Of a stretch of 59,613 nt of DNA, positions 1,641-53,259 are shown piece by piece. The translations under genes were made by a program, and so were the position numbers. The DNA lies in IMG/VR virus record IMGVR_UViG_3300031578_000031, positions 1-59,613 of that record; one strand, given 5' to 3'. The stretch is from a virus. Positions within the stretch are counted from its first letter, which is position 1; every line of letters begins with the position of its first letter. The notes below the pieces were generated by a model. That model saw nothing but the letters and a program-made list of their open reading frames with translations, ran no database searches and had not been told where the DNA came from.

Positions 1641-1984
1641 TGAATGCATTTTATGTAAATGCTTTAGCTCATAGGGAGGCGATTATAGAGGTATGTAATG
1701 AGTATGGCATATCGGAGTTGGATATATTTGTGTTGATGATGGTACATGGGAATATTCGTCCTATGTATGTGAAGGATGTTGTTAGGGTATTGGGTTCTGT
1801 TGATGGGCATAAGATTGTGTCGTTGGTTGAGCGGTTATGGAAGGTAGGGTGGTTACAGAGTCCTGGTCATGAGTTGCAGTTAATAACGAAGCGGTTGTAT
1901 GGTATTAGTTTATCGGGTATAGCTGTTTTGGATTCGTATAAATATCATTTTGAGAATATTCATAAAAAATTGGAATTAGGATGA
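1640..1984 (+). CDS. Winged-helix-like protein
   Basis: This 114-residue protein reads like a MarR-type winged helix: helices at HREAIIEVCNEYG, ELDIFVLMMVHG and YVKDVVRVLG, a probable recognition helix GHKIVSLVERLWKVGWL, then a hairpin wing (ELQLITKRLYGISLSG). It may regulate the early block. It overlaps the upstream gene by one base and the GroEL start by four bases (ATGA), which suggests coupled translation. The family assignment is by pattern only. Confidence 0.5.
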   Translation: MNAFYVNALAHREAIIEVCNEYGISELDIFVLMMVHGNIRPMYVKDVVRVLGSVDGHKIVSLVERLWKVGWLQSPGHELQLITKRLYGISLSGIAVLDSYKYHFENIHKKLELG

Positions 1985-3729
1985 AGACATATACTACTCG
2001 GCCAAGGAGGTCGGAAGAGATTAGGGGGGAGATTGGGGAGGCTTTGGAATTGGTATCTGACATTGTATGTTCTACGATGGGTCCTGGGGGTCGCAATGTG
2101 ACGTTACATAGTGATGCTGGCATATCGACTACGAAGGATGGAGTTACTGTTGCTCGTCATTTGAATTTGGAGGGTGGTGTTGCTAATGCTGTTGGGTTGT
2201 TGGCTGTTGATGCTGCGTATCGGACGGTGAAGGAGGTGGGTGATGGTACTACTACGTCAATTTTGATGTTGAAGACATTGTATAAGAATTTGGAGGATTT
2301 GACGGCTGACCGGGGTTTGAATTTATTTGCTGTTGGTCGTGGAGTTGATATGGCTGTGGATCATGTGAAGGGTTGTTTACATGGGATGGCTTTGCCGGTG
2401 AAGGATTCGGATGGTGGGATTGATAAGGCTTTGTTGAGGGATGTGAGTGTAATTTCTGCTAACAATGATGAGATATTGGGTCGGATGATTTCTGATTTGG
2501 TTTATCAGGTTGGGGAGAATGGGATTGTTGAGGTGAAGGATAGTATTGATGGGAGTACGTATGCTGTTAAGACGGATGGTTATGTTTTCAATACGATTGC
2601 GTTGAAGCAGTTTGTTCCTGTTGGTCAGAGTCATGTGGAGTTGGTGAATCCGGTTATAATGATAATTGATATGCAGTTATCGGATTATGATCAGATACGG
2701 GATATTGTACAGACGTGGAATGTGAATTGCAAGGATGGCAATGGGAAGTTACGTCCATTGGTATTGATTGTGTCGGATATAGAGGGTAGTGCGTTGGCTA
2801 CGATGACTATCAATAGTCGGACGATGCCGATATGTGTGGTAAAGAGTCCGGGATTTGGGTTGGTTCGTAGGGACTTGTTGGAGGACATTCAGGTTGTTAC
2901 GGATACTCGTCAGGTGTTTAACAATACGACTGGTCATACGTTGGATCGGTTTGGGTATGGTTTGAATGGGAAGAAGGAGATGGAGTTTGGTCGTGCGGAT
3001 AAGGTGATTGTGTATAAGGATAAGGTAATTATTTCTAATGACAAGGAGATGAAGCGGTGGAATACGGAGCAGACTGTGGTGGAGTTGGTGGAGAGGTTGA
3101 AGGTTATGGCTTCGGAGTGTGAGGGTGAGCAGGAGCGTGGCTGGATACGGGAGCGTATTAGTCGATTGACGAGTGGAGTGGGTACTATTTATGTTGGGGC
3201 TGATTCTGAGTTGGAGTTGGGATTTAAGCGGATGGTTATTGATGATGCTCAACGTGCTTGTTTTTCTGCGTTGGATGGAGGGGTTGTTATTGGTGGTGGA
3301 CAGGCCTTGTTGAAGTGTTATGCTTCGTTACAGGAGTTGATTGATACGATGGATGCTCATGGAGATGAAGCGGAGATGATTGGTGCTCTTGCGGTGTTGC
3401 GGAGTTTGTCTGCGCCAATTAGGATGATTATGAGGAATTTGTTTATGGGGGAAGCGAGTGTGGTGATGTTGAATGAGATTTCTAAGAGTGGTGGTGATAA
3501 GGCGTTTATGGGATGGGATTTTATGTCTTTTGAGGATGGCAATGGGGATGTTAGGGGAAATTTTGTAAATATGTTGACGGCTGGTATTGTTGATCCTGTG
3601 AAGGTGACGGTATCTGCGTTGAAGAATGCTGCGAGTGTGGCGAAGCAGTTATTGACTACGGAGTGGTTTTTATTTTTGGAGTCGAATAAGGATATGGATT
3701 TGGGTAAGATATTCTATCCGGAGCGTTAG
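1981..3729 (+). CDS. groEL: Phage-encoded chaperonin GroEL (Cpn60)
   Basis: This is a 582-residue group I chaperonin subunit, a little longer than the usual ~545. The nucleotide-binding motifs are intact: TMGPGGRNV (32-40), TKDGVTVA (51-58, Asp53) and GDGTTT (87-92, Asp88). IDDA at 420-423 carries Asp422, equivalent to the hydrolytic Asp398 of E. coli GroEL, followed by GGVVIGGGQALL. It should therefore be an ATP-driven double-ring folding cage. The usual flexible GGM-rich tail is absent and the protein ends in LGKIFYPER. Candidate co-chaperonins lie at 7286-8409, before the virion genes, so the likely clients are virion proteins. Its codons are strongly biased to G/T endings. Confidence 0.93.
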   Translation: MKTYTTRPRRSEEIRGEIGEALELVSDIVCSTMGPGGRNVTLHSDAGISTTKDGVTVARHLNLEGGVANAVGLLAVDAAYRTVKEVGDGTTTSILMLKTLYKNLEDLTADRGLNLFAVGRGVDMAVDHVKGCLHGMALPVKDSDGGIDKALLRDVSVISANNDEILGRMISDLVYQVGENGIVEVKDSIDGSTYAVKTDGYVFNTIALKQFVPVGQSHVELVNPVIMIIDMQLSDYDQIRDIVQTWNVNCKDGNGKLRPLVLIVSDIEGSALATMTINSRTMPICVVKSPGFGLVRRDLLEDIQVVTDTRQVFNNTTGHTLDRFGYGLNGKKEMEFGRADKVIVYKDKVIISNDKEMKRWNTEQTVVELVERLKVMASECEGEQERGWIRERISRLTSGVGTIYVGADSELELGFKRMVIDDAQRACFSALDGGVVIGGGQALLKCYASLQELIDTMDAHGDEAEMIGALAVLRSLSAPIRMIMRNLFMGEASVVMLNEISKSGGDKAFMGWDFMSFEDGNGDVRGNFVNMLTAGIVDPVKVTVSALKNAASVAKQLLTTEWFLFLESNKDMDLGKIFYPER

Positions 3730-4348: not shown

Positions 4349-4624
4349 ATGTTAAACGAAAACAGAAGAACAGGTAGGACTACTCGACTGATTGATGGAT
4401 ATATTCAGCAATTGTTTGAGGAAGGAAGTGTTCTAATTAAGGACCATCATGATTCACCGGATAGTCATTGTTATTTATTCAGGAAGGTATTGGCTCGACT
4501 TAAAGCAGAGCATAGATTCCAAACGATGATGGATAATAAATGGGTTGTAGTAGATGAACCAACTTTACAGATTATTTTTACGGGCAATTACTTAAAATTA
4601 TTAGAGGAGGGCAAGTCGAAATGA
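4349..4624 (+). CDS. Hypothetical protein
   Basis: This 91-residue protein is not recognised. Its N-terminus NRRTGRTTRLIDGY resembles the start of a P-loop (GRTTR) seen in many small phage proteins, but no Walker B or other ATPase motif follows, so enzyme function is not claimed. The DNA just before the stop (GAGGAGGGC) serves as the ribosome-binding site of the next gene, with a 4-base ATGA overlap. Confidence 0.6.
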   Translation: MLNENRRTGRTTRLIDGYIQQLFEEGSVLIKDHHDSPDSHCYLFRKVLARLKAEHRFQTMMDNKWVVVDEPTLQIIFTGNYLKLLEEGKSK

Positions 4625-5208
4625 TAGAAATAATCAGAGGAAACGTTTCAAGCTTAAAGCCGTCTCATGTCATTCTTGACGTAGGTGGTATAGGCTATTT
4701 TATCAATATAAGTCTCCATACTTTTTATGCTATTGAAAAGACAGGAAGGCCTATTGCTACAATATTTACGAGGTTCATTGTAAAGGAAGATAGTCAAAAG
4801 TTGTATGGGTTTGATGATGAGGAAGAGAGGGATTTGTTTGACAAATTGACAAGTGTATCGGGCATTGGCCCAAATACTGCCTTGGTTGTACTTTCTCACA
4901 TGACGGTATCGGAAGTTAAGGTTGCTATTGGAAGTGGCAATGCTGATGCTATTAAGAAGGTGAAGGGTATAGGTGGGAAGACTGCCGATAGGTTGATATT
5001 GGAATTAAAGTCAAAGTTTGAGGCGGAGGTGAAGGATGTTGTTGCCGTTGAAGTTACCGGTCCTATTAAAAATGTACAAGTAATTTCGGATGCGATTGCT
5101 GCCCTTGTCGTTCTTGGTATTGATAAGAAAAAAGCTACTGAAGCTATTAAGTATCACCTTGGCCCTACTGTTCAGGATTATGTGAAGCAGGTGTTAGCAA
5201 AAATGTAA
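4621..5208 (+). CDS. ruvA: Holliday junction DNA-binding protein RuvA
   Basis: This 195-residue protein covers the whole RuvA family. It has an N-terminal OB-fold (IEIIRGNVSSLKPSHVILDVGGIGYFINI...), then two helix-hairpin-helix motifs (LTSVSGIGPNTALVVLS near 80-96 and IKKVKGIGGKTADRLILEL near 117-135). The C-terminal domain III, normally the RuvB contact, starts at about 150 (ISDAIAALVVLGIDKKKATEAI). It should bind four-way junctions as a tetramer. No RuvB or RuvC is in the window, but the RusA resolvase follows two genes later. A clear AGGAGGG site precedes the start. Confidence 0.93.
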   Translation: MIEIIRGNVSSLKPSHVILDVGGIGYFINISLHTFYAIEKTGRPIATIFTRFIVKEDSQKLYGFDDEEERDLFDKLTSVSGIGPNTALVVLSHMTVSEVKVAIGSGNADAIKKVKGIGGKTADRLILELKSKFEAEVKDVVAVEVTGPIKNVQVISDAIAALVVLGIDKKKATEAIKYHLGPTVQDYVKQVLAKM

Positions 5209-5211: not shown

Positions 5212-5895
5212 ATGAAGTATTTTATGAATGAGAATACGCAAATGTTTCAGTATTTCACTGAGCTAATGGGTAAATTCTTAAAAGAGGTATTTAGTAGATG
5301 CGATGTACAACATGGCTTTGATGGAGAGGATCTTGCCGAGTATATGTACAACCATTTTTTAATGGAAAATCCGGTATATGGAGACGATTATTATTTCTTT
5401 CCAATAGACGATTATTTTAACAAAGTGGTAGTTCCGCATAAGATTGAAGTTTTCTTAGCAGGATATGCAATGATTCCAATGATAGAGGAATATAGTAAAG
5501 TTTTTAGAGTTGACAGCAATGAATTTATCAAGCAATTACTTGTACATGATTTGTCGAAGTTTTCTATAAATGAAATTGCATACGCTTTTTATAACTTTAA
5601 GGATAAGTCTAAAAATCCTGAATCTAATCGCATTGCTTTTGAATTAGCTTGGAATCATCATAAGCACATGAATCCACATCATCCGGAGCATTGGCTTGGA
5701 TTTGGAAGGGCAGGTGTGTTGGAGAGTGAATTTGATATGCCCTATAAGTATGTCCTTGAAATGGTAGCGGATTGGATTGGTGCAGGTGAAATTTATGGAA
5801 GCAGCCTGGACGAGTGGCTGCCCAAGAATAGAGGAACTTTTAATTTCAGTTTAGAAACATCTGTTAGGTTGGACATAATCTTAAATGCGATATAA
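5212..5895 (+). CDS. HD-like (DUF5662-type) protein
   Basis: This 227-residue protein has a histidine/aspartate pattern like the DUF5662 family found in phages and related to HD hydrolases. It shows LLVHDLSKFS (near 105), AWNHHKHMNPHHPEHW (near 145-160) and YKYVLEMVADWIGAG (near 180-195). The His and Asp residues could bind a divalent metal for phosphohydrolase chemistry, but the substrate is unknown. It sits between RuvA and RusA, which suggests a DNA or nucleotide role by context only. The N-terminal 90 residues are acidic and aromatic. Confidence 0.6.
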   Translation: MKYFMNENTQMFQYFTELMGKFLKEVFSRCDVQHGFDGEDLAEYMYNHFLMENPVYGDDYYFFPIDDYFNKVVVPHKIEVFLAGYAMIPMIEEYSKVFRVDSNEFIKQLLVHDLSKFSINEIAYAFYNFKDKSKNPESNRIAFELAWNHHKHMNPHHPEHWLGFGRAGVLESEFDMPYKYVLEMVADWIGAGEIYGSSLDEWLPKNRGTFNFSLETSVRLDIILNAI

Positions 5896-6457
5896 TATGA
5901 TAGATATGCCTGATAATAAAATGACTGTGGATGATTACAAACGGTTGCTTGATAAAATAGGCCTTTCTTTGTATGAAGCACCTGTTGGTGTGGAGTTATT
6001 AGAAGTAGTTATTCCGATAGAGCCTATGGGTGCTGTTCGGGAGAATAAGAATACGAAGTGGGGGTCCGGAGCTGCAGCTAAGAAAGCGAACGAATACCAT
6101 GCCTGGAAACATTCTGTGCAAGTTTTATGGATTCAGGCGATGTTGAAGTTAAAATTACCGAAAGATACCATACCTTTAGGAGTTATTCACTCGTTTGAGT
6201 TTGGCTTGTCGATACCTAATCCGGATGTAAAGAGCTTGTCTAAGGTAAAAAGGCAAGAGCGATTGGACTTGATAGGTACTCCTCATAAGAAGAAGCCGGA
6301 TTGGGATAACTTATGCAAGGCATTTATTGATGCGCTGTATTATAAGAAGGATATTGATGATGGGTCTATTTGGAAGGTAAGTGCTGGTATTGAGAAAGTA
6401 TATACTGCGTATGGTAAGGGATATGTAAAGATAGTGTTCCCGATAATCAAAAAATAA
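5885..6457 (+). CDS. rusA: RusA-like Holliday junction resolvase
   Basis: RusA enzymes are small dimeric, metal-dependent nucleases that cut four-way junctions, and are common in phages. This 190-residue protein has the family's hallmark acidic motif KKPDWDNLCKAFIDALY followed by DIDDGSIW. It also has the upstream strand EVVIPIEPMGAVRENK, matching the usual P-x-x-x-x-R start. In-frame ATGs at 5897 and 5906 are possible alternative starts, and 5897 falls just after the previous stop. With RuvA upstream it probably clears replication and recombination branches before packaging. Confidence 0.88.
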   Translation: MRYNMIDMPDNKMTVDDYKRLLDKIGLSLYEAPVGVELLEVVIPIEPMGAVRENKNTKWGSGAAAKKANEYHAWKHSVQVLWIQAMLKLKLPKDTIPLGVIHSFEFGLSIPNPDVKSLSKVKRQERLDLIGTPHKKKPDWDNLCKAFIDALYYKKDIDDGSIWKVSAGIEKVYTAYGKGYVKIVFPIIKK

Positions 6458-7285: not shown

Positions 7286-7678
7286 ATGAATGAAGGACAT
7301 TTCCCGTATGCCGTAGCCGATGGGCACGTGGCATTGAAGTATGAAGAAGGATATGTGGAGAAAGATGGTATCCAGGAGCCACACAAGAAGATAAAGATTC
7401 GGACGGCTATTGTCGTTGCCGTTGGCAATTCTTCCAAGAAGTCTTGGGATGAGATTAGCCCTATGTTGGTCGTTGGCCGAAAGGTGCTGATGCCTTCGGT
7501 GAATAAGCAGGAGTTCCGGATAGATGGTACTTCATATTTTGTGTGTCACCATAATGACATCAAGGTTATTGATCCAGCCGATGATACTACCCTTATGTTG
7601 GAGTTGTTGGAGAATCACATGAACTCATTGCCGAAGGATGTTGTGTCGAAGTTCACTCAGAAATTTGGTGGATTATGA
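7286..7678 (+). CDS. GroES-like co-chaperonin candidate
   Basis: This 130-residue protein shows the Cpn10 beta-barrel pattern: RTAIVVAVGNSSKK (compare GTVLAVGxG), MLVVGRKVLM (compare VKVGDxVLF), FRIDGTSYFVCHHNDIKVID (compare IDGEEYLIxxESDILAIV). A loop at about 24-36 (YVEKDGIQEPHKK) fits the position of the mobile GroEL-binding loop. About 35 extra residues follow the fold. ATG 7286 is preferred to an in-frame TTG at 7277. It would cap the phage GroEL at 1981. The overlap with the next gene (ATGA) points to coupled expression. Divergence is high, so structure prediction should confirm it. Confidence 0.6.
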   Translation: MNEGHFPYAVADGHVALKYEEGYVEKDGIQEPHKKIKIRTAIVVAVGNSSKKSWDEISPMLVVGRKVLMPSVNKQEFRIDGTSYFVCHHNDIKVIDPADDTTLMLELLENHMNSLPKDVVSKFTQKFGGL

Positions 7679-8409
7679 TTATTACAAATAACAGTGTACT
7701 AATACTTCCGGACCCAAACTTTGTTAAGGATGGAGAGATACAGTTATTTGATGCATTTGAGCCTGCTAAACATTTTTCTGTAAAGGGTACGGTATTGGCT
7801 GTGCCGAATAAGCTGAATTATTATGGGGATGAGATTGAACGATTGAAGCAATTACCAAGGAGTTTAGATAGAACTAAAACGATTCAGGAGCTAAATAGGT
7901 GGAGCTTGCCTTGGGATACGAATTTAGGCATTGTGGTTGGTGACGAAGTTTACTTCCACTACATGAACAGGATAGCAGGAGTAGAGGACAACTTGGTACT
8001 CGGCAAAGATGAGCTTGGAGAAAGGGGCTTATTGTTTGTTGATTATGACCAATTGTATATGGGTACGCATGAAGGCTTGTCATGGATGCTGAATGGATAT
8101 ATCTTAGTTGAAGCAATTGAGTATAGTGACGATGAATTGATGAGCTTAGGTGGAGGATTTGAGAAGTATGTCAAGTCAAAAGAAAAGCCTGGCTTTGGGA
8201 TTGTTAGGTCTCTTGGAATTGGTTCTTGTGGTCCAAATAAATCTTATCTTGATGGCAGTGTTGAAGGACCTGAAGTATGGGATGGGATGGAAGTATTGTT
8301 TCGACATAGTAATGCGGTGCCATTTGAGTATAAATATCACAAGACTGTGAATGAAGGCAAGTATGCTTTTTACAAGATGCAGCGAAAAGATATTTTGGCA
8401 TATAGATAA
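7675..8409 (+). CDS. Tandem double GroES-like protein candidate
   Basis: This 244-residue protein appears to hold two Cpn10-like barrels. The first (about 1-135) has NNSVLILPDP, FSVKGTVLAVPN, GIVVGDEVYFHYM and GLLFVDYDQLYM. The second (about 145-244) has LNGYILVEAIEY, GFGIVRSLGIG, EVWDGMEVLFRHS and KYAFYKMQRKDILAYR. Each repeats the GxVxxVG ... GDxVxF ... DIL order of GroES. Plant chloroplast Cpn20 shows that double GroES proteins exist. It probably pairs with the single-domain gene upstream to cap the phage GroEL during virion protein folding. The loops differ between the two halves. Confidence 0.55.
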   Translation: MIITNNSVLILPDPNFVKDGEIQLFDAFEPAKHFSVKGTVLAVPNKLNYYGDEIERLKQLPRSLDRTKTIQELNRWSLPWDTNLGIVVGDEVYFHYMNRIAGVEDNLVLGKDELGERGLLFVDYDQLYMGTHEGLSWMLNGYILVEAIEYSDDELMSLGGGFEKYVKSKEKPGFGIVRSLGIGSCGPNKSYLDGSVEGPEVWDGMEVLFRHSNAVPFEYKYHKTVNEGKYAFYKMQRKDILAYR

Positions 8410-9816: not shown

Positions 9817-12027
9817 ATGGCTGCAGGTATAAAATCTGACGAATATTTTTACATTAAAGAATTTGACTCTGATCCGGAGATGATAGAAATTGAAGGATTT
9901 GAGTTAGCTATTCCTTTGCCTAAAAAGCCAAGTAAGAAACATTTTAAGAATTACGGCAAGCAGATAAAAGACCAAAAATTTAAGAAAGAATTTATTCCAC
10001 CTGATTTGCGGTACTGGGCAAAGCGAGACTTAGATGCGTTTGTGTCTTTGATGTGGCATAAGCGAAAGAATGGGGAGTGGTGGCTTATTGGAGGGAAGGA
10101 AGTTTATGTTCCGGGCAAAGCCTGGATGTTCTTAAATTTTTGGTACACACAAAAAGGTCCATTGCCCGATTTCCGTATGGAAGTCATTGACTTCTTTACC
10201 GTATGGGATTTTGCGGAGGAAGATCCGAATTGCTATGGCATTGTTGACATCAAGCCTCGGCGTATTGGAGATACGGAGAAGACATTGTTCTTAGTGTGGG
10301 AGCATTGCTCAAGGGTGAAGTATCAGCGTGGCGGTATGCAGAATGTAAAGGACGATGCTGCTGAAAAGAACTTCAAGCGATTGGTAAAGGGGAATAAGAA
10401 GATGATATGGTTCTTTCGTCCTACCATCAAGGGTAGCGATACGCCATCTAAAATATTAGAGTTCACCTATCCGGAACAGAAGGTCACTCGAAAGAAATTA
10501 AAAGAAGCTGCCCGAAAGAATGCAGGTGGCACTAAGGTTGTGGATAATGAGTATAAATTCAACCCTATTGAGAGTTCTATTGACTACGAGGCAAGTATTC
10601 AAGGCCGGTATGACGGGGAGCAATTAGGTATCTACCATTTGGATGAGCCTGGAAAGATTACGGCCTTTGACATTAAGGACCAATGGCCGGTAATTAGACG
10701 GGCACTATCATTGAATAATGACCGTTTGATTGTAGGTAAGGCGATATTCACCACAACAGTAGAGGATTATCAGAAGGGGAGTAAGAGTGGAGAAAGTTTA
10801 TCTACCCTGAAAAACATTGAATACTTTTGGAAAAATTCAGACCCGACTAAAAGGGATGGGAATGGTAGAACGATAACAGGACTATATCGGTATTTCCGAA
10901 ATTGCGTGTTGTCTGATGAAACGGATGAGTTTGGGTTTTATAATAGAGCAAAGACTATTGAATGGGTTATGAATACCCGACAATCGTTAGAGGACATTAG
11001 TGACTGGGACCGGCTATCACAAGTAAAGAGGCAGTACCCAATAACTATTCAAGATGTATTTACAGTCTCAATGGATGATTGTGTACTCATGCCAATCTTA
11101 CTTGACCGTAGAAAAACACAGATTGAAGATGGCTTGACTTGGAATAATAAAGTTGATCCGGATGGCTATATCAAGCCAAAAACAGTTGTTGGGGATTTAA
11201 TATGGGAGGGAGGAGCCTTTGGAGGGCTTGTTGAATTTTACCCAAATCCCAATGGCCGATTTGTTATAAGTCAATTTCCTACGAAACGAAACTTCAAAAT
11301 TATCGTAAGTGATAATATAGTCAAGCCTGGTAATGATGATACTTATACATTTGGAGTTGACCCTTATGACCACATGGTTGAAGGTAAGGCTGGAGAAGAT
11401 GGTAGTCCTATACATTCAAAGGGAGCCGGCATTGTGTATCGAAAATATAGTGAGCTACTTGACGGCCAACTTGAAAAAGATGAGGATGGCCGGATAAAAG
11501 AGAGTGAAGTTCACAAGATGAAGTCAGATACTTTTGTCTTGTCGTATGCCCATCGTCCACAAGATCCGCATGAATTTTATGAGGATATGCTTAAAATTTC
11601 GTTATATTATGGAGTGGCCATGTTCTATGAGAAGGATAAGCCCGGTGTAGGTAACTTCTTTAGAGCGAATAAGCTACCTACTGGGCAGACATTTGGGACC
11701 TTCCTAAAAACAAGGCCCAAGGAAACTAAGACTGCTTATAGTGCAAAGAAAGAGAAAGGGGTAAAGGCTTCAGTGCCAATTATCCAAATGTATGTAGATT
11801 CATTAAAGTGGCACGTTATCCATCGTATTCATAATTATCACCATCTTGACATTTTGGATGATTTTAGAAAGTTTAAAGTCCATAATAGGACTGAATGTGA
11901 TATTACCGTAGCTGCAGGTATGGCACTATTGGCTGCCGGACAAATATCCATACAGCGAGTAGTTGAAAACAAGAAGCAGATGAGTAATAATGTTGCATTC
12001 TTTAGGAAACATAAATTTAACCGATGA
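9817..12027 (+). CDS. terL: Terminase large subunit
   Basis: This 736-residue protein is the packaging motor and nuclease. The ATPase half has a Walker A-like segment KPRRIGDTEKT (146-156), unusual for lacking the classical GK[ST], and a Walker B GIYHLDEPG with Asp276-Glu277. The nuclease half begins with YTFGVDPYD (Asp515), the first metal-binding acid of the RNase H-like fold, followed by KGAGIVYRK. It should cut concatemers and pump DNA through the portal encoded two genes downstream. Length is typical for large Bacteroidota phages. It overlaps the next gene by four bases (ATGA). Confidence 0.88.
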   Translation: MAAGIKSDEYFYIKEFDSDPEMIEIEGFELAIPLPKKPSKKHFKNYGKQIKDQKFKKEFIPPDLRYWAKRDLDAFVSLMWHKRKNGEWWLIGGKEVYVPGKAWMFLNFWYTQKGPLPDFRMEVIDFFTVWDFAEEDPNCYGIVDIKPRRIGDTEKTLFLVWEHCSRVKYQRGGMQNVKDDAAEKNFKRLVKGNKKMIWFFRPTIKGSDTPSKILEFTYPEQKVTRKKLKEAARKNAGGTKVVDNEYKFNPIESSIDYEASIQGRYDGEQLGIYHLDEPGKITAFDIKDQWPVIRRALSLNNDRLIVGKAIFTTTVEDYQKGSKSGESLSTLKNIEYFWKNSDPTKRDGNGRTITGLYRYFRNCVLSDETDEFGFYNRAKTIEWVMNTRQSLEDISDWDRLSQVKRQYPITIQDVFTVSMDDCVLMPILLDRRKTQIEDGLTWNNKVDPDGYIKPKTVVGDLIWEGGAFGGLVEFYPNPNGRFVISQFPTKRNFKIIVSDNIVKPGNDDTYTFGVDPYDHMVEGKAGEDGSPIHSKGAGIVYRKYSELLDGQLEKDEDGRIKESEVHKMKSDTFVLSYAHRPQDPHEFYEDMLKISLYYGVAMFYEKDKPGVGNFFRANKLPTGQTFGTFLKTRPKETKTAYSAKKEKGVKASVPIIQMYVDSLKWHVIHRIHNYHHLDILDDFRKFKVHNRTECDITVAAGMALLAAGQISIQRVVENKKQMSNNVAFFRKHKFNR

Positions 12028-30300: not shown

Positions 30301-33300
30301 ATGCCTGGTACACCAAAGGAAGAAAGAAAGAAAATGTATGACCTGCTCAAATCTGAGAAGGAATACGATGGAGACTCTTTTGAAGATTTTGAAGCTGATT
30401 TCGGTACAGCCGAAGGTCAAAAAATGTTATTTGACCATGTTTCTAAAAAGGGGCTTTATACTAAAAAGTATGAGGATTTTGTTGGCAAATATTATGCTGA
30501 CGTAAACCAAGAGCAAGTTACCGAAAAAAAAAAGGAACAAAAAGCTGCAATCCAAGAAGAGGTTGGTGGCGGTTGGTTCGATGTTGGCTTGCCCGAAGAA
30601 TCTACCCCGAAGGATTCTCCGAAGCCGGCTACAATACTAATGGACCCGAAAAAGGCCGCAGCTCAAATTGTAAACAGTAACGAGAAAATAAATTCTGAAA
30701 GTCTTAATGAATTGTCAAAGCGCATGGGTGCAGCATTTGGCACGAATGAGGTATGGGATAATAATGTAAAAAATGCTGAGAAAAAGCTAAATACGGAGCT
30801 ATCTGTTTTAGAGGAAAGAAAGGCTGCTGGCGACATTAAGGATGAAGCTATCTATAAAAAACTTGTAGAAAAATCTCAAAAAAAGCACGATAACACCGTA
30901 AAGGTTGCACAAGATGCGAAGCTATATGAAAGAAAATTGTCGAATGAAGGGATTGCTCCTCCGACTTATTTAGCATTAGAAACATTGAAAACCATGCAGC
31001 CGGAAGAGGAATGGGTAGATAAGCCCATTTCTGATAAATTATTTCATCAAATAGATGAAATGTCGAAGAAAGATGGTTCTTACCTATCACTTGATTTGCC
31101 TGAAAGAGCTGACCCAAGCATGATGATAATTCCTTTCTCAAGGAGTGCTCCACTTGCTGATAATGTAGATAAAGTATTAGATGCAGAGGGATTTACGGGA
31201 ACAGAACGTTCCGCTATGCGATTACATCTACTACAAAGACTGGTTAATCAGCCAAGAATTGATAAAATAGAAACGAAATTAGCAAAATCCCTAAAGAAAT
31301 TAGGAATGCCCTCTCCTGCGGAGTTTGAGAAAGAGGCTTCTATTATTCAAGACATTCAGAATAATGTAAATAATCAAGTTGTTAAGTATCGTGCCAATTG
31401 GGAGAACCAAGGGAAGGTGCTTGACGATGCCTTTAAAGTGAAAAGTGACTCTTATAAAGAACAGAAAACATTAGAACTTGAAGGACTTGTTGCTGCCTAT
31501 CAAACTGCATTTGAAAAAGGAGAAGTAAGTGATAAGGTTGCAAACGAAGCAATTAAGAAGAAACAGGAAGAGATAAATGCTGAGTTCAAGACTATGTATG
31601 ATGATTACATAGTCAAGCGTAGTGCAATTCAAGAGCAAAGTGCAGTAGAATATGGTAATATTCATAAGCTAAATGAAGAGTCAGTAGCGAAAATAGCCAA
31701 ATTCAAAGAAAAGTATAAGCTGGTGGACGGTAAGTTCTCTGAAGAATACAAAGAAAAATACCAAGCGGTTGTCGAAAGTGTATGGGAAGAGCAAGATTTG
31801 ATTGACAAATCGGCTCAAGCAGATGCTTGGAATAAAATGAATTACCTGCAAAAATTTGAGACATCCTTACAAGGTGGATTTATGAATTTGGCAGAGATGG
31901 GATTTGGCGGATGGAAGTATTTCGCACCTGGTGCGGAAATGCCGGATATTGGATTGATTGATATTGATATTGCCCGTAAAAATGCACCGGCACCTGATCT
32001 TGGTGATTTTAATTTACATCACCTATATAGCCCTGATTGGTGGGTAAAGAATTTAGGAGAGCAGCTTCCTATTATGTTACCCCTAATGGGTACAGGTGGA
32101 GCTGTAATGAAAGGAGTTACATTAGGATTAGGCACAAAAGGGGCTACGAGTGCCCTTTCAAATGTGCTTGGAAAGTATGGACAACTAACTTTACAGACTC
32201 GCCAAGCGATTGGGTCTGTTTTTGGTGGTGGTGCATCAAGGTACATTGAGTCTTACATGGAAGGGTCATTGACGTTTACAGAATCTCTAAAAGATGGTAA
32301 GAGTTGGGAGGAATCAATGAAAAACTTCCAAACTGTTCGAGATTCTAATCTTATGTTAATGGGACTGGATGCTATGCAGATGTATATGACTTTTGCAAAA
32401 GGGCCTAAGATAATGGCATCTAAAGCTCCTTATTCCGGCATTCCAAAGGGCTTGAAAAACGCATATTCCTTTGGGGGAAAAATGGGCATTATGATTTTCT
32501 CCGAAGGAAAAGAGGAGCAACTTCAAGAGTGGTTCCAAGCAAGGGTAAACAATCCTTACTTATCCTTTGGTGCATTCGCTAATTCTGAAGCAGGTAAAGA
32601 AGTGTTTTGGGTAGGTGGTATGATGGGCGTAGGGACCTCAGCAATGTTTGGTGGATTCCGTGACCGTTCTGCTATCGGTATGATAAATAAACAGGTCCAA
32701 AGCTATTATAGCATGATGGACTCAGGAGATGTTTCACTGGATGAAGTAGAGAATAGGCTCCACCAATTAGGAAGTACGATTGAAACATTAAAAGCTCAAG
32801 GCGTTCTTTCTGACAAAGAAATCGGGAATGCCCAAGAAATACTTGCACATAGTGGGCGTATGTTCAATCAAGTATATAATGGCATTTTACCATTTGAGTA
32901 TGATAGTCCTCAGTTCAACGAATATTCAGCCCTTACATGGGAGCATGAACAATTAAGAAAAAAAGCGGAACAGTACGATAAAGCTGTCCCTAATGAAGAT
33001 ACAGCAGTAGAGAAGGAGTTGATAAAATCTCAACAAGAGAATATCAATGACCGGATAATGGAAATAGTATCAGACCCTAAAGCAAGTAGCTATGGGGTAG
33101 ATGATATGCCATTGACAAAAACGGAGTTTGAGTCACTTGTATTTGATCCTGCAAACAGAGAAGCCTTAGACCAAGGTAGGCTTACTACTAATGACCCTGA
33201 AATATTAGCCAGGATGAGGTCAGAAGGCATTAAGGAAGAAATGTTCCTTGGCAATGCTGAGAATGTTATGACGGAATTAACCGGCAGCACTGACTTTTCT

Positions 33301-36300
33301 ATGGAGAATGTCGATGATTCCATAATGATAGCAGAAGATAAATTGGCCATTGCCAAAGAGGAAGCTGCAAAAAATGAGAATAGCTCAAAATACCCTAAGT
33401 TCCTGAATGCGGAAAGGGATGCTCAAAGAAATCTCGATGATTTGAAGTATTATAAAGGGCATCTTGAAGAGCAACAATCTATTTTAGATAAAGGAGTGAT
33501 TCAAACAGAATATACTCCAATCACCAATACGCAAGATTTACTTGATACTAAAAAAGATGATGTATTCGAGGGGCCTGATGGAAAACAATGGACTGTTGTA
33601 AACAACTCAGAGGGCAGGGGAATGATGAAGTCTGAAGATGGTAAGTATAAAGTATTTACAGCTTCGGAGGAGTCTATAAAAGAATTAGAAGGCTTTCGTA
33701 GAGTTTCGGAAGTCGCTGCTGTTACACCTGTTGTTAAGGAAGACATTACTCCGGCAAAAGAAGAAGGAGTAGTGGTACCCGAAGGGGATGGTGAAGTTAT
33801 TCTTGAAAACGAAGATGGGACACCGAGTGTTACTGCTTATACATCTGAGGAAAATGGGGTGACAACTACAAGAATCGAGAGCGAACCAAATAAACACGGT
33901 CACAAAGGGATGGACTGGTTTAATGGAGAGTTATTCGTAAAAGATTACGGGGTTCCGGAAGCTGAAATCCTAAATCAATTGCCGGGGGCGGAAGCTATAT
34001 CTGATGTCAATTCAGTTGTTGTTAGTGAAGAAAAAATAGATGCAGATGGTAATAAATCTGTTAGAATAACAGGGCGATACGAAAACCTGAACACAGGGAC
34101 AATGGAAGACTTCGATATAGAAGTTCCTGTTGCTAATTTAAACTATACGCTTACTCCGGAGCAAAAGAAGTTGATAGGCGAAACTATTGCTAAAGCTAAG
34201 GTTGAACCCACTCCGGCCAAGGAGAAAGCACCTGTCGTTGAAGAAAAAACAGAAGGTGAGCCTACTACCGAGGCTAAGGTTGAGCCGGTAAAAGAAAAGA
34301 AGGGTGTTATAAATGTAAATGCCCCAAACGAGCAAGGTAAACTTAATAATAAAGAAGTGAATCTCGATGTATCGGATGAAAATTCTATGTACGAGATATT
34401 CAATTCTATCGGAGATAATGCCGAAATTGATATAACAAGAGACCCTAAGAAGTTAGATCGTATGTTGGGAATGCCTAAAGAGTTTATGCTTGGGGCAATA
34501 GAGAATCCGCCTAAATCATCAGTTAAAACAGGTGAAGATTTACTAAATAATTATGAGATTATTCCTGGAAAAGTTAAAAAGGCTGGGCAAGGATATAAGG
34601 TAACGCAAAAAATAAAACTCGTTCCCAAGCAAGGGAAAAGTGTAGTTACACCTATCACCGAAACCAAAGTAGAGCCGGAACCTATTATAGAGGAAGAAGA
34701 AGATGTTGAAGGTGAATTGCAAGACACCCCTATCAATGCGGCCGAAGATGTTAAGCGTGGATATAGGGTTGTTGGTGGTATCCGATATGACCGTCCGGCT
34801 GTTATAGAAGATATGCATACCGGCGATGAGATTGGAGTTCGATTTGGGCCAAATGATAAGGTTCAAGCTAAGTTTGCAGTAATGGAAGCAAGTGACGTAG
34901 AGCAGTCACACATGAAAACCATGCCCAATCCTAAATTCTTTGTCAATCAGCCAAAGGGTAGAGGGCATGGCGACTTTATGAAAATCACCGGAACCATCAA
35001 GGCGATGGCCTTAGATAATGAAGCGTTGGCATATTCGGCCAATGCTTACTTTGGTCCACCGGTAGTCAATACAAGGGGAGAAGTCCTACAAGGGAATGGC
35101 CGGACTGAGGGTATCAAGATTGCTTATAACGAATATGGGAGTAACGCTGCGAGCTATAAGCAATACCTGATTGACAATGCAGCTAAATTCGGACTGGACC
35201 CTGATGTGATAGCAAAGATGGAACGGCCAATGATGGTTCGTGTCATTGATGTGACTGATGATGCCGGAAAGAAGCTGTCGAGCTTTAAATCTTCTGACCT
35301 TGAGGATCAAGGAGGAGCGAAGAGCGAAGCTATTTCAATGGTTCGTAAAGTTACGCCTGAGCAATTAGATAGCATTATTAGTGCTTTTGAAGGTAGATTG
35401 GATGCGTCAAAGTCTCTAAAAGAGATTGTGATGAATATAAAAATAATCAATGCCCTTCATAAGGCAGGGGCAATTTCGGACCAAGACTATTCCTCCGGAG
35501 TAACCGGTAGTGTTGTTAGTTCGGAATTGGCAGATAAAGCTGTCTCTTTCTTTAAGCAATTAGTATTAGAGGGGGGTATTCCTGACTTAGCATTTCACTT
35601 AGATCAATTGCCGTTCTATATCATGGATGGCATTGAGCGTTCAACGGTATCGCTATTAAGTACGAATCCACTACGGGATATTATGCCCGACTTGCACATA
35701 GCTATCCTTGGTGTTAGAGATTATCTATTCGGTAGAAAAAGTCAAAACTTAGGCAAATCTCAAACAATTGAGGATTGGTTAAATATTCTCGAATCGGATG
35801 GTTCAACGAAAAGAGACCAATATACACCCGTAGAGCTTGCGTTGATAGAGTTTATGGTGGATAAAACGGCTAAACAAAAAGAGATTGCTAAATTATTTGC
35901 CGACTATAAAACAGCAGTAGAACCTATTGTGGGGGATATGTTTACAGAATCCTTTGACGGTATATCGAAAGTAGAAGCTATAAATCAAATTCTTGGAACA
36001 AATATAGACGAAAATGAAAACAGAAGAAAAGAACTTGAACTTTCCCGAACTGGTGAAACAGCAACGGGAGTTCCGAGCAAAACAGAATCAACCGAAGCAA
36101 CAACCGGAGAATCAGGAGAATCGGTTAGCAAACAACCTACTACAACTGAGCAAGAACGCCAAATTGATAGAGATGAATCGGAAGTAGAGCCTTCTGAGAT
36201 GGAAATGAGCGATGTCTTTGCTGAATTTGATAGACTAATCAATTCAGGAGTAGATCATGTTATTGCTATGGATACAGCGATGTCCTTAGCTGAAAATTCA

Positions 36301-39300
36301 GGACTATCGGCAGAGGCCTTGGAAGAGATTGAGGATATTTTGGAGCAGGATGTCAAGCTTGAAAAAATCAAGAAGGGCGTTACAGAAAAAGCTTCCGAAA
36401 TAGAGATTGAGCTATCTGAAGATGTAACGCCGGCCAAGGTCGAAGAATTGGCTGAGGAGAACGATAAGCTTCTTGATGAGGCTATCCTCCCTACGGAGCT
36501 AAATGATGCGCTGATAGACCAATTAAGCCAAGGTGGATTGATTAGTATTGATGATGCCCATTATGCTAAAAAGCATTTAAAAGAGCCTAATGAAATTACG
36601 CAAGATTTCTATGACTTAGCTTTATCCAAGTTACCTGAATTTGCCGAAAAACAAAAAACTTCTAAAAAAGCTAAAGCAGAAAGAGCTAAAGCAGAGAAAG
36701 TCACTGGGAAGAAAAAAACAAAACCTACTGAAGAGAAGGCTGAAAAACCAAAAAATGCCAAAGAGAAAAACACTCAACTGGATAAAAAACTCGACATAGC
36801 TAAAACTAAGTTGCAGGATTTGTTGGATAAACTAAAAAATAACGATAAGAGCCAAAAATCAGGTGGGCCTACTATTGGAGAGGTACGTATGGCTGCAATG
36901 ACTTATGGTGCGCTTTATGCTGATAAAATAGCTGAGATTCATGCAGATAATCCGGAAAAGATAAACAAGGCAAATTGGAGACAAGGCATGATTGATACTT
37001 TTGGAGATATTATTAGTCCTTATTTGGATATGATTTTGGGAATGACTACACCTCCATCTGTCCATAATGACACTCCTATCCTATCTGACCATATAGCGAA
37101 TCTCAGGAAGATTGCCAAGGGCAAAGAGGTTGTTATCAATACAGAAACACCTGCTCCGGAAGGAAAGCAGGGCAAGCCAAAGGTAGATGAACGAGTAGGT
37201 AATGAGAGACCTCCTATAACTTATGTGAATTATGAAAAGCTACCAAGCTCAGTAGATGAGTTTATTCCGGAGTCTCGATATGGCACCGAATTAGACAAAC
37301 ATCAACGATTTGCTGTTAATATGGCTTTGACCAATTTCCTATCCAATGGCAAGCGTGGATTCTTATTGTTAGATAGTATGGGAGTTGGTAAGACTCGTCA
37401 AATTATAGCCACTGCTATCGAATATGCGAAACGGACCGGTAAAAAGGTTGTTATCGTAACTCAAAATCAACAAATAATTGATACGGCATTCATGCCGGAT
37501 GCCTTGGCTATGGGGATAGATTTAAGTAAGGAAAACGTTGAGCTTATTACCTATACCCAATTAGAAAAAGCTTCTAAGAATCAGTATGGGCTGGTAATCT
37601 ATGATGAATCCCAAAACTTGAAAAATCCAAGCAAAAGATTTGAAGCAAGTGGAGCAATAGTTAGTACCCATGTCATGTATTCTACGGCTACGCCTGGTGA
37701 TAATATAGGTAATGCTATATATTTCCTATCAGACCTACTTGGTATTTCAAGGGAAGAAATGATGGGGGAATTAGGTATTACTAAAACAAAGGAAGGAACT
37801 TGGGAGCTTCGTGCTAACAAGTCGGAGCTGGATGCCATTACTGCTATCAATGATTACATTCAAAAGAGCTTTGAGGATGGGCAGATTATTCGTAGAGAGT
37901 ACCCTTATTGGGGTACTATTGGAGAAGACATTATACCAATTGACTCTGATCAAGAATTAGAAATTGAAGGAATCAATGCTGCTTATGATGAACAGATAGA
38001 CAAAACGAGACCTAACCAAACATTCTATGATGGCAAAACCGGCCAAATGAAAAACTCCGGTAAAGGTAGGAGAGGTTGGGATAATCGGTATAAAGGCTTA
38101 TCGGATGATGCTGCTAATGTATTGGATGATGACATCATCCGTTCATTGAGGGAGCAAAAAATCAATATGCTTGACAAGCTTGTAGAGACATACAAAGTTA
38201 AAGCTGCTGTTTTGCGTATCAAGGCCAACCTGGCCGAAGGAAAAGCAGTAGTCGTTACATCTCAAAATGTGAACGAGCTAAATATTAAAGGATTAAATGG
38301 CGACATGACTACAACGGAGAAACGCCAATCTTTCCTACAAGAATTAGCAAAAGCCTTAGACAAGGCTGGTATCCCTTATGTAGAAATAAATGCAAAAACT
38401 GACAAGTCAAAAGCAGTTGAGGATTTTCAATCAGGGAAAGTAAATGTAGTAATAGGCTCCATGCAATCTATGTCCACTGGCATTAACTTAGATGATGTTA
38501 CCGGAGACAAGCCAAGGGTATTGTATGTTGCTTCTGCTTCATACGATGCTAATGCATTCAATCAGGTGCAAGGAAGAATTTCTCGTAGGAATACAAAAAC
38601 ACCTGCTGAGACAAATATTCTATATGGCAATACTGCTTCGGAAACAACCAAAAGAGGCAAGGTAGAAAGAAAGACAGGCGTACTTGGAGTATTCCAAGGA
38701 GCCGGATTAGATGCGGATAGTGCCAAGGAAATCGAAGAAAACGATAAATTACGTAAAGGTAAAGCCTTGGATCGCAAAAAACCTTATATCGAAACTTTTG
38801 AGGTAAAGGGGTCTATTGTATCCGGAGGCTTCATCCTGGTAAAGGATTCATTCGACATTAAAAACCTTCTCAAAAATATTGGGGCAAAACCTCATACTAA
38901 ATGGGAGAAACAATCCGATGGTACGAATAAAAAGGTATTCCAAGGGTGGGAGTTCCCAATCAGTCGTAAGGCTGAGATAGAGGAGTTGGTTGAGAAGTAT
39001 AATGCAGGGGAGTTGGATATAAATTATGCCCGAAATTCTAAGGCTAATTTTCAATTTTCTACGATGGCCGGCACAAATGCCAACCGTCAAGTGAATGCTA
39101 CTGCTCCAAAAGGAGGTACTGGCACTGCTCCTCGAATAGACGTATCTGTTATTACCGGTAAAAAGCCAAAACCTATTCGAGAGATTATTGGGGACGTTAG
39201 AAGAGCTTTTACTGTTTACATGAAGTATGGCAAATATCAACCTGGCAGCCGTGCTGCCGGTTCATATCAGGCAGTAAATTCTGCTATCCATGCAGCAACA

Positions 39301-42300
39301 CCTAATGATATAGATGTAATTGCACATGAATTAGGACATCTCCTCGATGATAGGCTAAAAATATCTCCTATGGATGATGCATTAGATACGGAATTGATGG
39401 ATTATTGGGCTTATGGGTCTGCTGCTCCGGCAAGCCATCCAAATCCTCAGCAATATATCCGTTCTGAAGGTATTGCTGAGTATATCCGTGCAATGATATA
39501 CAATCCTGCAGAAGCAAAGTCAAGGTCCCCTATCTTATGGGACTTGGTAATGAATAAATTATCAGAGGCAGAAATTAAAGCGTTAGAGACGTTTTCAGAA
39601 GATGTTAGAACGTTACATGGTGCTGATATTTTAGATCAGATGGCAGCCACTATGCAAGAAACTGAGGCTGATAGAAAAGCTCGAAGTAATGCTTATCAAA
39701 ACAAGAAAAGAGCTTGGGATAATATGATGCGCCGATTTGGATTCAAATCGGATGGAATGTCTAACTTTAATATTACGTGGTGGGATAAGTTGAATCGAAA
39801 TTGGGCAGACAAGTATGCTCCATTTAAAAAATCTATGCGTGAATTGCAGAAGATAAATGGAGTAACAGAGCAAGATATTCTACCGGAAGATAATCCATAC
39901 ACACTCGCAAGGTTATTCTCCGGACTGGGGAGTAAGATTAAGAATATGTTCCAACAAGGAGTTGTTACAATTGGCAAAGATGGACTCGGATATTCTCGAT
40001 TAACTGATTTATCGGATATTAGTAAACAAACCTATTTCAATAATGTCAAGAAAGGTGATATAGTGCAAAAGGGTGACGATAGTTACACTGTTGTTGAGGT
40101 CGAAAAAAAGCCTGGCACTAAGGATTCTGTTAAGATAACTGCATTTAAGAACTATGGGAAGGATGTAGATTCTTCCAAGTCAATTGAAATTGTATTTGGG
40201 TCAAAAGAAGCTACTGAATACAAAAAACAATCGCCTATTACAATGGATTGGCTGTTAGCCCCTATTCAATTGGCTATAAATGGAAAATCATCTAAATATG
40301 GTGCTGTTTCATTTAAGGGTAAAAATGTAGCGATAAGGGATTTTAAGGATTATGTAGGATTCTACATGGTAGCCGAAAGGACTATTGAATTAGCAAACAG
40401 GTTTAATAGAGAGGATGTTCTTACCGGTATAGGTATTGGCATGACAGATTTGGATGCAGCTCAGAAGTTTTTAGATAAGTTTGAAACAGAAGGCCCTGCC
40501 TTTCAGGAACAGGTACAAGAGGCAGCTCGCCGATACCGGATATTCGCTGATTCTATGTTACGATATATGCTTGACTCCGGAAGGATTAGTCAAGAGCAGA
40601 TTGACTTAATTAAGGCCAATAATCTCCAATACGTTGCAATGCAACGGGTACAGGATATGAATCCTGGAGAAGATTTTGATTTTATAGAGTCATCCGGTGG
40701 AGGCCAATTTAGCCTTGACAAAGCTGTAAAAGGTTCAAAGAGAGATAGATTTGACCCTTATGAAAACTTAATGACTAATTTTCATAAGGTAGTGGAGAGT
40801 TCTGACTTGAATCAGATTTATAATGCTTATGTAGATTTGATGAGAAATGATAGGTCTATGTACGAAGGAGATGTAACTCCTACGGCAGATATTGGCCGAC
40901 AAATTCATATAACTCCGACTACTGATATTAGCAACCGGCCAATTATTATTGTTTATAATAAAGGGGTAAAAGAATATTGGGAATTAGATCAAGATGTATA
41001 TGATTCAATTCAGCTAATTTCTCGTAGCATACAATATTCAGATGTTGTTAAATTGTTATTGAAAATAACAGGTGTTTACACCAAGGTTCTTCGTGGAACC
41101 GTTACAAAAAGTCCTATTTTTGCCTATCTAAGAAACTTGCCAAGGGATATTCAAGCAAGATGGGTTCAATCAAGAACAGCAGGGAAAGCAGATATTGCAG
41201 GATTCAGGGAGCATTACTTAAAGTTAGGACTGGATGAGAATACAGTTGAGGGGCTTATTAAAGATTTGAATAAGTCAAAAAAAGAGACTATATCTAACTT
41301 TGAGTTATATGGTGGGGACCAAGCAGGATATTATACAAAGTCTCGTGAACATTACTATGCTGCGATGGATGTAGCTATCAGAAAGATGGCAAAAGAAGGC
41401 AAAATTGTGATAGATTCTCAGACATTATCTGAAGTTTGGGATAACTATGACAATTGGTTAGCAAAGGGGGAGCGTAGCACCCGTGTAGCTGAATATAAAT
41501 CGGCATTCAAATACGCTAAGACGAAATTGAAGTATGACGATTATAATGCATCTTTATATGCAGCATTCCAAGCGAGAGACTTAATGGACTTCGCTGTTGT
41601 TGGGGTTCACATGGATTTCTTTAATAAAATAATTCCGTTCTCGAATGCCTCATTACAAGGTACATTGAGAACGATAAAAGCATTCAAGGAAAATCCAAAA
41701 GGGACTTTATTGAAATGGATGTTGATAAATGGTGCGCCTCATGCTTTGTTCATGGCTTTATCTATGCTTGGCGACTATGAGGATGAGTATGACGAATTGC
41801 CGGCATATCAAAAAGATATGTTCTATAATTTCAAGATACCACAACTTTCTAAGGACTTATGGTTCACTATACCTAAGCCATTTGAGTTAGGTATCACAGG
41901 GACGGCTTTTGAAAGGATGGCTACAATGATTAAAAATGGAGAAACATTCGACAAAGCATTCCAAGGATATAATGGTAGTTTGTACCGTGCCATGATACCG
42001 TTTGCTCCTGAAGATATGCTTGGCCCGTTCAAAGCGATAAATGAAGCAACATCTAACTATTCTGCGTTCTATCAATCGTCAATCATCCCTGGATATGAGG
42101 AACCATTGGCCGTTGGGATGCGAAAAGGGACATCAAAGGCATCTAACCTTGGGAAAGTAATTGGGTCTGCAATGGGATTTGGTGGAGAAGGGGTTGATCC
42201 TCGTAAAGTAGATTATGTTATTAAAAACTGGTTCTCTTATTTTGGGGACTTAGCTATGAAAACATCAGATCTATTCCCAAGCGGAGAAGAAGGTGATACG

Positions 42301-46888: not shown

Positions 46889-47764
46889 ATGATACTACAT
46901 TCATACTCAGGTGGTGGGTTTTACCTAAAGGGCATAGCCAAGGCAGCAGCACAAGCCGTGATGAATCATGGCAGTGTGCCCAATGCAGTAGCAGGTGTTT
47001 CCGCAGGTGCATATACCGCAGCAGTTATGGCTATGCGAGGTGCAGCCGTACTGGAATTTGAAGCAGGAAATGTGAAGATGAGTGATGCTTTTGATAGTAT
47101 CCCCTTGACAAAAAAAGGCAACCTTTCATGGAGAGCTTGGCTGAATGTGCTATGTGGAAAGAACTATCTGTCTGACCAAGATGGTCGTCCATTCCTCGCA
47201 AGCATTATCAGTCCGGAGCATTTTTACAACTATCAGCAGCTTGGTACTATCGACTGTTGGGTGATGGCAGTAAAAGTAGAAACAGGAGAAAGAACATTTT
47301 GGAATCTACGCACTGATCCTCGTTCCTACCAAGAAATGTTGGACATGGTAGAAGCAAGTAGCCGGATACCGGTAATGACACAGGCCGTAAAGGTTCGTGG
47401 TAGCTACTACTGGGATGGTGGTAATCGTGACCACAATCCATCTGAGTTGCTGATAAGACAGTATGGCGATAAAGCCACTGAGCTGTTTTCTATATACGCT
47501 CGTCCGGAAGACTTTCAAGTAGTCAACCCTGAATGGGCAAAAGGTTTTGTTTCTACGATAATGAGGTCCATAGAGATCTTTAGTGTAGAAGTAAGTAAGT
47601 CCGATGAAGAGATTGAGAAGCTTCTATGTAAGGAGCTAAACATAAAGAGACAGGCGGTTTATCTGCCTCGCATTTTGAAACATTATTATGATGCTACGCC
47701 TGAGAAGCTGAAAGAGTTAGAAGCTCATGCCGTAGCTCTCACAGAACAAGCATTTAATCAATGA
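46889..47764 (+). CDS. Patatin-like phospholipase
   Basis: This 291-residue protein carries the patatin catalytic elements: oxyanion loop SYSGGGFYLKG (residues 5-15), nucleophile elbow GVSAG (36-40, Ser38) and the Asp motif DGG (Asp176, in YYWDGGNRDHNP). It should therefore hydrolyse acyl chains of phospholipids using a Ser-Asp dyad. It overlaps the downstream holin by four bases. Release of the phage by membrane breakdown is the likely role; a virion-borne or anti-defence role is also possible. Confidence 0.8.
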   Translation: MILHSYSGGGFYLKGIAKAAAQAVMNHGSVPNAVAGVSAGAYTAAVMAMRGAAVLEFEAGNVKMSDAFDSIPLTKKGNLSWRAWLNVLCGKNYLSDQDGRPFLASIISPEHFYNYQQLGTIDCWVMAVKVETGERTFWNLRTDPRSYQEMLDMVEASSRIPVMTQAVKVRGSYYWDGGNRDHNPSELLIRQYGDKATELFSIYARPEDFQVVNPEWAKGFVSTIMRSIEIFSVEVSKSDEEIEKLLCKELNIKRQAVYLPRILKHYYDATPEKLKELEAHAVALTEQAFNQ

Positions 47765-48369: not shown

Positions 48370-48370
48370 C

Positions 48371-48955: not shown

Positions 48956-48976
48956 ATATTTTTAATAAAATAAGTT

Positions 48977-49016
48977 TTAAAATGCTTGTTTTTTAAAAAT
49001 ATTAAACATACATTTG
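48977..49016 (+). promoter_or_regulatory. Promoter with extended upstream element
   Basis: TTAAAATGCTTG (48977-48988), including the -33 TTG, a 20-base spacer and TACATTTG (49009-49016) form a strong Bacteroidota-type promoter. The same 12-base element, with one change, and identical spacing occur at 55688-55727. It starts the replication module. Confidence 0.75.
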
Positions 49017-49041
49017 TATTGTTAAGATTTAGAATTACATT

Positions 49042-49079
49042 AAGCAACGCATCTTGACCGGTGTGTTGCTTTCTGTTTT
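49042..49079 (+). promoter_or_regulatory. Leader hairpin (attenuator candidate)
   Basis: AAGCAACGCAT (49042-49052) pairs with GTGTGTTGCTT (49061-49071) over 11 bp with two G-U pairs. TCTGTTTT follows. It lies between the promoter at 49016 and the start at 49098, so it sits in the leader and may be a conditional terminator of the replication operon. Confidence 0.6.
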
Positions 49080-49097
49080 AAAAACATAAGTAGGATT

Positions 49098-49806: not shown

Positions 49807-49829
49807 AACATACTTTACTCTATATTATC

Positions 49830-49923: not shown

Positions 49924-49943
49924 TTATATAAAAAAGGCTCGAT

Positions 49944-52591: not shown

Positions 52592-52612
52592 CTTTCTAAA
52601 ACATAATAGTAT

Positions 52613-52642: not shown

Positions 52643-52666
52643 TAACTTAATTAAAAGACAGAAATT

Positions 52667-52879: not shown

Positions 52880-52898
52880 CGTTTGATTATAAAAAATC

Positions 52899-52931: not shown

Positions 52932-52968
52932 GAAATAATGTTTAACCTAAGCAGATGGGCTAAAAATT

Positions 52969-53240: not shown

Positions 53241-53259
53241 CACATTTATAAACGCATTG

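What the first reader, a model, noticed from the sequence alone, without database searches (positions are those of the whole stretch)
7286..8409. Two adjacent GroES-like genes, one apparently a tandem double domain
Both proteins follow the GroES order (GxVxxVG, then VGDxVxF, then a DIL end). The second shows it twice, in residues 1-135 and 145-244. Together with the phage GroEL at 1981-3729 this would be a complete, self-made chaperonin with an unusual mixed cap (single and double lids), resembling chloroplast Cpn10/Cpn20 arrangements. They sit right before the virion genes, so a dedicated virion folding machine is likely. I know of no described phage system with this layout.
Basis: partly seen in the sequence, partly recalled or inferred. 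Interest (0 to 1): 0.87.

Follow-up and report, generated by a model that had tools for sequence, protein, structure and literature searches.

The report
Phage chaperonin with a double lid
This virus of bacteria carries its own protein-folding chamber (GroEL) with two kinds of lid protein, one ordinary and one made of two lid units fused in tandem; the same trio turns out to be a conserved, unremarked feature of a group of Bacteroidota phages, so a chloroplast-like mixed lid can be tested in phages already in culture.

Summary
Confirmed, with corrections. The 7286-7678 protein is a genuine Cpn10/GroES (Pfam 5.6e-8). The 244-aa protein at 7675-8409 has no direct database hit, but relatives place it as a head-to-tail double GroES: an 18-member family profile hits chloroplast Cpn20 best among PDB sequences, and a relative's AlphaFold model matches Cpn20 (7ekq_R) full-length. 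The window's own, weaker model ranks T4 gp31 and Hsp10 first, not significantly. The phage GroEL keeps its ATPase residues. The system is not unique: GroEL, single GroES and a double GroES near the terminase occur together in four of four deposited genomes checked (Cellulophaga phi38:1, Flavobacterium elemoE, Maribacter Panino, MW202828) and in five metagenomic phages; three of the four label the double protein simply 'co-chaperonin GroES'. Specific to the window and one sister phage: the single GroES gene lies beside the double one (overlapping ATGA), its GroEL-binding tripeptide is non-canonical (IQE/FEE), and the double protein's second half keeps a long loop. Best explanation: a phage-encoded group I chaperonin closed by a mixed single/double cap. 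Cap composition and clients are inferred. Novelty: new variant of a known kind.

The parts
1981..3729 (+). Phage GroEL (group I chaperonin homologue, 582 aa)
   Evidence: Pfam Cpn60_TCP1 7.7e-37; PHROG 5725 GroEL 2.3e-98; ATPase residues D52, D87, D398 and GDGTTT kept
7286..7678 (+). Single-domain GroES/Cpn10 (130 aa) with a non-canonical mobile-loop tripeptide (IQE where Hsp10 has IML)
   Evidence: Pfam Cpn10 5.6e-8; Hsp10 alignment; 45% identical partner in L007
7675..8409 (+). Tandem double GroES (244 aa), Cpn20-like in architecture; start codon overlaps the stop of the single GroES (ATGA)
   Evidence: Family alignment and profile, models and fold searches; 44% identical partner in L007
7675..8073 (+). 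First GroES-like unit of the double protein (about residues 1-133), with a helical insertion at residues 51-83 and a hydrophobic triplet in the mobile-loop position
   Evidence: Model, loop alignment
8077..8406 (+). Second GroES-like unit of the double protein (about residues 135-244)
   Evidence: Model; homologous halves of the L013 and phi38:1 doubles pass the Pfam Cpn10 cut-off
9817..12027 (+). Terminase large subunit, the neighbour that the double GroES accompanies across relatives
   Evidence: PHROG 6681 1.6e-46; synteny

Best explanation
The phage makes its own group I chaperonin. GroEL (1981-3729) is an ATP-driven folding ring. The single GroES (7286-7678) and the double GroES (7675-8409), encoded by overlapping neighbour genes, together build a seven-unit lid, most simply three doubles plus one single (3x2+1=7), that closes the phage GroEL while it folds phage proteins, head proteins being the likeliest clients. 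Shown by computation: homology of all three proteins, intact ATPase residues, double-domain architecture, conservation of the trio and of the double gene's place near the terminase. Inferred: that both lids sit in one cap, the 3+1 count, that the phage rather than the host GroEL is the partner, and the clients.
For: Single: Pfam and Hsp10 matches. Double: family profile hits Cpn20 best among PDB sequences, leave-out ranking, relative's model matches Cpn20 chains full-length, viral-library match 2.4e-5 to a phi18:3 cpn10. GroEL catalytic residues kept. All three genes together in the window, L007, four of four deposited genomes checked and five IMG/VR records. Single and double genes overlap in this clade. 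Precedent: Arabidopsis Cpn10(1) works only with Cpn20, three doubles plus one single being the favoured arrangement (PMC4242682); the PDB entry 7ekq holds single and double chains together.
Against: No complex was modelled or measured. In relatives the single GroES lies beside GroEL and the double beside TerL, which also fits two separate jobs. The C-half loop is about 12 residues shorter in elemo-type doubles. GroEL contact positions for GroES are only partly kept. Virion clients rest on gene position only.
Confidence: 0.55

Rival explanations
1. Two separate lids: the single GroES is the general lid of the phage GroEL, and the double GroES forms its own homo-oligomeric cap (as Plasmodium or Arabidopsis Cpn20 can) for a special client such as the capsid protein, without mixing.
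For: In relatives the single lies beside GroEL and the double beside TerL; Cpn20 alone can act as a lid (PMC5780408).
Against: In the window clade the two genes overlap and the single's tripeptide is non-canonical, which fits dependence on the double.
Confidence: 0.22
2. The double GroES is no longer a lid: it is a GroES-fold assembly or packaging factor (for instance a terminase partner) kept beside TerL.
For: Constant place near TerL; C-half loop shortened in elemo types; strong sequence divergence.
Against: N-half hydrophobic triplet kept in nearly all members; always together with GroEL and a single GroES in deposited genomes; in the window and L007 two other genes lie between it and TerL.
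Confidence: 0.12
3. The lids serve mainly the host GroEL, as T4 gp31 does, and the phage GroEL works alone or mixes with host subunits.
For: T4 gp31 and RB49 CocO act with the host GroEL (PMC9598537); EL, OBP and AR9 phage GroELs work without a lid (same source).
Against: The phage encodes a GroEL of its own and both lids co-occur with it in all deposited genomes checked.
Confidence: 0.07
4. The 244-aa protein is not a GroES at all and the resemblance is chance.
For: No hit by itself in Pfam, NCBIfam, PDB sequences or phage records; its own PDB fold matches are not significant; leave-out E-values are modest.
Against: Alignment in register, profile hit to Cpn20, viral-library fold match 2.4e-5, the relative's fold search, top ranking among ORFs and shuffles, and conserved gene position.
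Confidence: 0.04

Closest known systems
PHROG 13932 'co-chaperonin GroES' beside TerL in Cellulophaga phi38:1 (Callevirus, Pervagoviridae), Flavobacterium Elemovirus and Maribacter Panino
   Same: Homologous double protein near TerL, with GroEL and a single GroES in the same genome
   Different: 180-200 aa instead of 237-244; shorter second-half loop; single GroES near GroEL rather than beside the double; about 20% identity
Chloroplast/apicoplast Cpn20 (and Chlamydomonas Cpn11/20/23)
   Same: Two GroES domains head to tail in one chain, accompanied by a single-domain Cpn10; best PDB sequence and fold match of the family
   Different: Phage-encoded, very divergent; no biochemical data; C-half loop reduced in many members
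T4 gp31 / RB49 CocO
   Same: Phage-encoded GroES-fold co-chaperonin; gp31 is the first, non-significant, PDB fold match of the window model
   Different: Single domain, works with the host GroEL; no phage GroEL (PMC9598537)
EL, OBP and AR9 phage chaperonins
   Same: Phage-encoded GroEL orthologue
   Different: Those work without a co-chaperonin (PMC9598537); this one is accompanied by two

Membership tests
Cpn10/GroES (single protein, 7286-7678) | Sequence match over the curated Cpn10 cut-off | tested here: met
   33.1 bits against 21.1; the match covers residues 34-92 only
Cpn10/GroES (single protein, 7286-7678) | Hydrophobic tripeptide in the mobile loop (IVL in GroES, IML in Hsp10) | tested here: not met
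   IQE in the window, FEE in L007; singles of relatives are canonical
Cpn10/GroES (single protein, 7286-7678) | Heptameric ring binding GroEL with ATP | not testable with these tools
   No complex prediction or biochemistry available
Cpn20-type tandem co-chaperonin (7675-8409) | Two GroES-type domains head to tail in one chain | tested here: met
   Family alignment, relative's model matching 7ekq_Q/R full-length; the window's own model agrees in layout but only weakly in fold search
Cpn20-type tandem co-chaperonin (7675-8409) | GroEL-binding loop in each domain | tested here: inconclusive
   First half: hydrophobic triplet place kept; second half: long loop (GGGFEKY) without a clear triplet
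Cpn20-type tandem co-chaperonin (7675-8409) | Forms functional rings alone or with Cpn10 | not testable with these tools
   No experiment or multimer prediction
Cpn20-type tandem co-chaperonin (7675-8409) | Common descent with plastid Cpn20 as a double protein | not tested
   No tree was built; independent doubling is possible, so it is called Cpn20-like only
PHROG 13932 | Match of the protein to the PHROG profile | tested here: not met
   Neither the window nor the L007 double matched it alone, although 16 of the 18 aligned members do
Group I chaperonin GroEL (1981-3729) | ATPase residues D52, D87, D398 and GDGTTT | tested here: met
   Alignment with E. coli GroEL
Group I chaperonin GroEL (1981-3729) | NCBIfam GroEL equivalog cut-off | tested here: not met
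   298 bits against 582 (TIGR02348): a divergent homologue
EL/OBP/AR9-type phage chaperonin | Works without a co-chaperonin | not testable with these tools
   The genome encodes two lids, which makes it unlikely

The most novel reading that the evidence does not exclude
An obligate mixed cap exists in phages: in this clade the single GroES has lost its canonical GroEL grip and works only inside a ring with the double GroES (about one single to three doubles), so that phage and chloroplast arrived at the same seven-unit single/double lid.
Probability: 0.3. Interest if true: 0.82.

Novelty: new variant of a known kind. Interest (0 to 1): 0.6.

Why it matters
To my knowledge double co-chaperonins are described only from plastids and the apicoplast, where a seven-fold GroEL meeting a two-domain lid is a recognised symmetry puzzle (PMC5780408). 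A phage group with GroEL, a single and a double lid gives a second, compact case, partly in cultured phages (phi38:1, elemo, Panino), where gene removal and in vitro folding can test how mixed lids work and whether head assembly needs one. It also refines annotation: PHROG 13932 'GroES' proteins are double.

Tried and rejected
Direct searches with the double protein alone (Pfam, NCBIfam, PDB sequences, phage records, IMG/VR) found nothing. Scans with the single GroES returned nothing or only the sister phage; a genome-collection scan with TerL found nothing. I considered that the single's odd tripeptide co-varies with the polar residue at the L234 position of phage GroEL; rejected, because relatives with canonical tripeptides also have polar residues there. 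Idea that the cap serves a phage ClpP, as in 7ekq: no ClpP found in the window. The first family alignment misaligned the C half because of C-terminal tails; trimming them fixed it. The iterative HMM drifts towards single GroES proteins, so the leave-out profile is the cleaner test. Half-against-half profile comparison was in register but weak and is not used as main evidence. No closer relatives for a deeper alignment were found, hence the medium confidence of the window model.

Full report
OBSERVATION. The window is a 59,613-base IMG/VR virus record. The stop of the first and the start of the second overlap as ATGA. The first protein is a Cpn10: Pfam 33.1 bits against a cut-off of 21.1, human Hsp10 at 1.6e-6. 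The second has no direct match in Pfam, NCBIfam, PDB sequences, phage records or IMG/VR, so it had to be reached through relatives.

RELATIVES. A GroEL search gave one sister phage, L007 (IMGVR_UViG_3300044624_001994, 69.8 kb), with GroEL 48%, single GroES 45%, double protein 44% and TerL 67% identical, and the order single - double - two genes - TerL - portal. TerL searches led to Flavobacterium Elemovirus, Cellulophaga phages, Maribacter Panino and many IMG/VR contigs. In elemoE, Panino and phi38:1 a 180-200 aa protein annotated 'co-chaperonin GroES' lies just before TerL; such proteins belong to PHROG 13932. In MW202828 it is a hypothetical protein one small gene away from TerL. An HMM started from two of these proteins reaches L007 and the window in later rounds, and then single GroES proteins.

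IS IT A DOUBLE GROES? Four lines, of unequal weight. (a) A profile of 20 family members without the window and L007 ranks these two first among all their ORFs (E 0.0026 and 0.0003) and above 2000 shuffled versions; the E-values are modest. (b) The 18-member profile, which includes the window, has Cpn20 (7ekq_R, 1.6e-4) as best PDB sequence hit, and its eight best hits are all co-chaperonins; the matched part is the C half. C halves of the phi38:1 and L013 doubles pass Pfam's own Cpn10 cut-off. (c) The window model (pLDDT 69.4, pTM 0.67) has two successive strand sets with low-confidence segments where mobile and roof loops would be. Its PDB fold matches are weak: none reaches E 0.001; T4 gp31 (0.065) and Hsp10 (0.14) rank first and second and GroES fifth (0.94), with unrelated proteins at ranks 3 and 4. 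In the viral library it matches phi18:3 'Chaperonin cpn10' over its length at 2.4e-5, and every named hit down to rank 33 is a GroES. (d) The relative L034 gives a better model (pLDDT 81.8) whose first two PDB matches are 7ekq_Q and 7ekq_R over about 210 columns, and whose first 36 hits are all co-chaperonins (7ekq_R is named Cpn20; that 7ekq_Q is Cpn23 is my own knowledge). The strongest structural evidence is thus for the family; for the window protein it rests on homology to that family. I put the double-GroES reading at about 0.95.

THE CHAPERONIN. The GroEL keeps D52, the GDGTTT loop with D87, and D398; the C-terminal GGM tail is absent and the apical residues that hold GroES are only partly kept. 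In all four deposited genomes checked (phi38:1, elemoE, Panino, MW202828) GroEL, a single GroES and the double protein occur together (with 17, 18, 52, 67). Five IMG/VR records also have all three; others lack a GroEL or single GroES match but may be fragments. PMC8776804 lists cpn10 among eight core proteins of Pervagoviridae; the text read does not say which cpn10. PMC13288928 lists methylated peptides of phi38:1 GroEL from infected cells and from free virions, so such a phage GroEL is really made.

LOOPS. GroES grips GroEL by a hydrophobic tripeptide in its mobile loop. At this place of the double protein's N half the 15 elemo-type members read L[VI][VLTI]NT, and the window, L007 and L013 read EIQL, VFEL and KLYL. 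The C-half loop is about 12 residues shorter in the elemo type and long in the window, L007 and L013. The single GroES of the window and L007 has IQE/FEE, whereas singles of relatives have GLLL, GLIM or GLYL.

MECHANISM. The most economical reading is a phage-encoded group I chaperonin closed by a mixed cap, one single plus three doubles making seven units. The precedent is Arabidopsis, where Cpn10(1) acts only with Cpn20 and three Cpn20 plus one Cpn10 is the favoured arrangement (PMC4242682); 7ekq also holds single (P) and double (R, two chains) co-chaperonins together. The gene overlap and the non-canonical loop of the single in this clade fit dependence of the single on the double. Clients are inferred from the place of the double gene at the head-packaging module. 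Nothing here is tested biochemically: 0.55.

NOVELTY. The double-domain character in phages and the mixed-lid possibility were not found in the papers searchable here, a library that excludes most subscription journals; the most relevant paper known to me (Marine et al. 2017, ISME J, viral chaperonins) is not held. New variant of a known kind.

Noticed in passing
L007:2205-7501 (between minus-strand early genes): Ten copies of an intergenic repeat of about 50 nt with arms AACGGAA/TTCCGTT and an inner stem that alternates between GGGAG..CTCCC and GGCGG..CCGCC, a compensatory change; it folds better than shuffles (z about -3) and matches no Rfam family over threshold. None in window 48000-59613.
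   Followed up: partly
window 4621-5208 and 5885-6457: A RuvA homologue (RuvA_N 8.9e-20) and a RusA resolvase (2.5e-10) lie between GroEL and the GroES pair.
   Followed up: no
window 46889-47764: Patatin-like phospholipase homologue in the phage (4.6e-14).
   Followed up: no
window 30301-42663: A single ORF of 4120 aa, about a fifth of the record.
   Followed up: no
L003:4823-5617 (minus strand): A 265-residue frame on the strand opposite TerL joins the double-GroES family in the iterative HMM, while its record has no GroEL or Cpn10 match; could be a displaced relative or profile drift.
   Followed up: no
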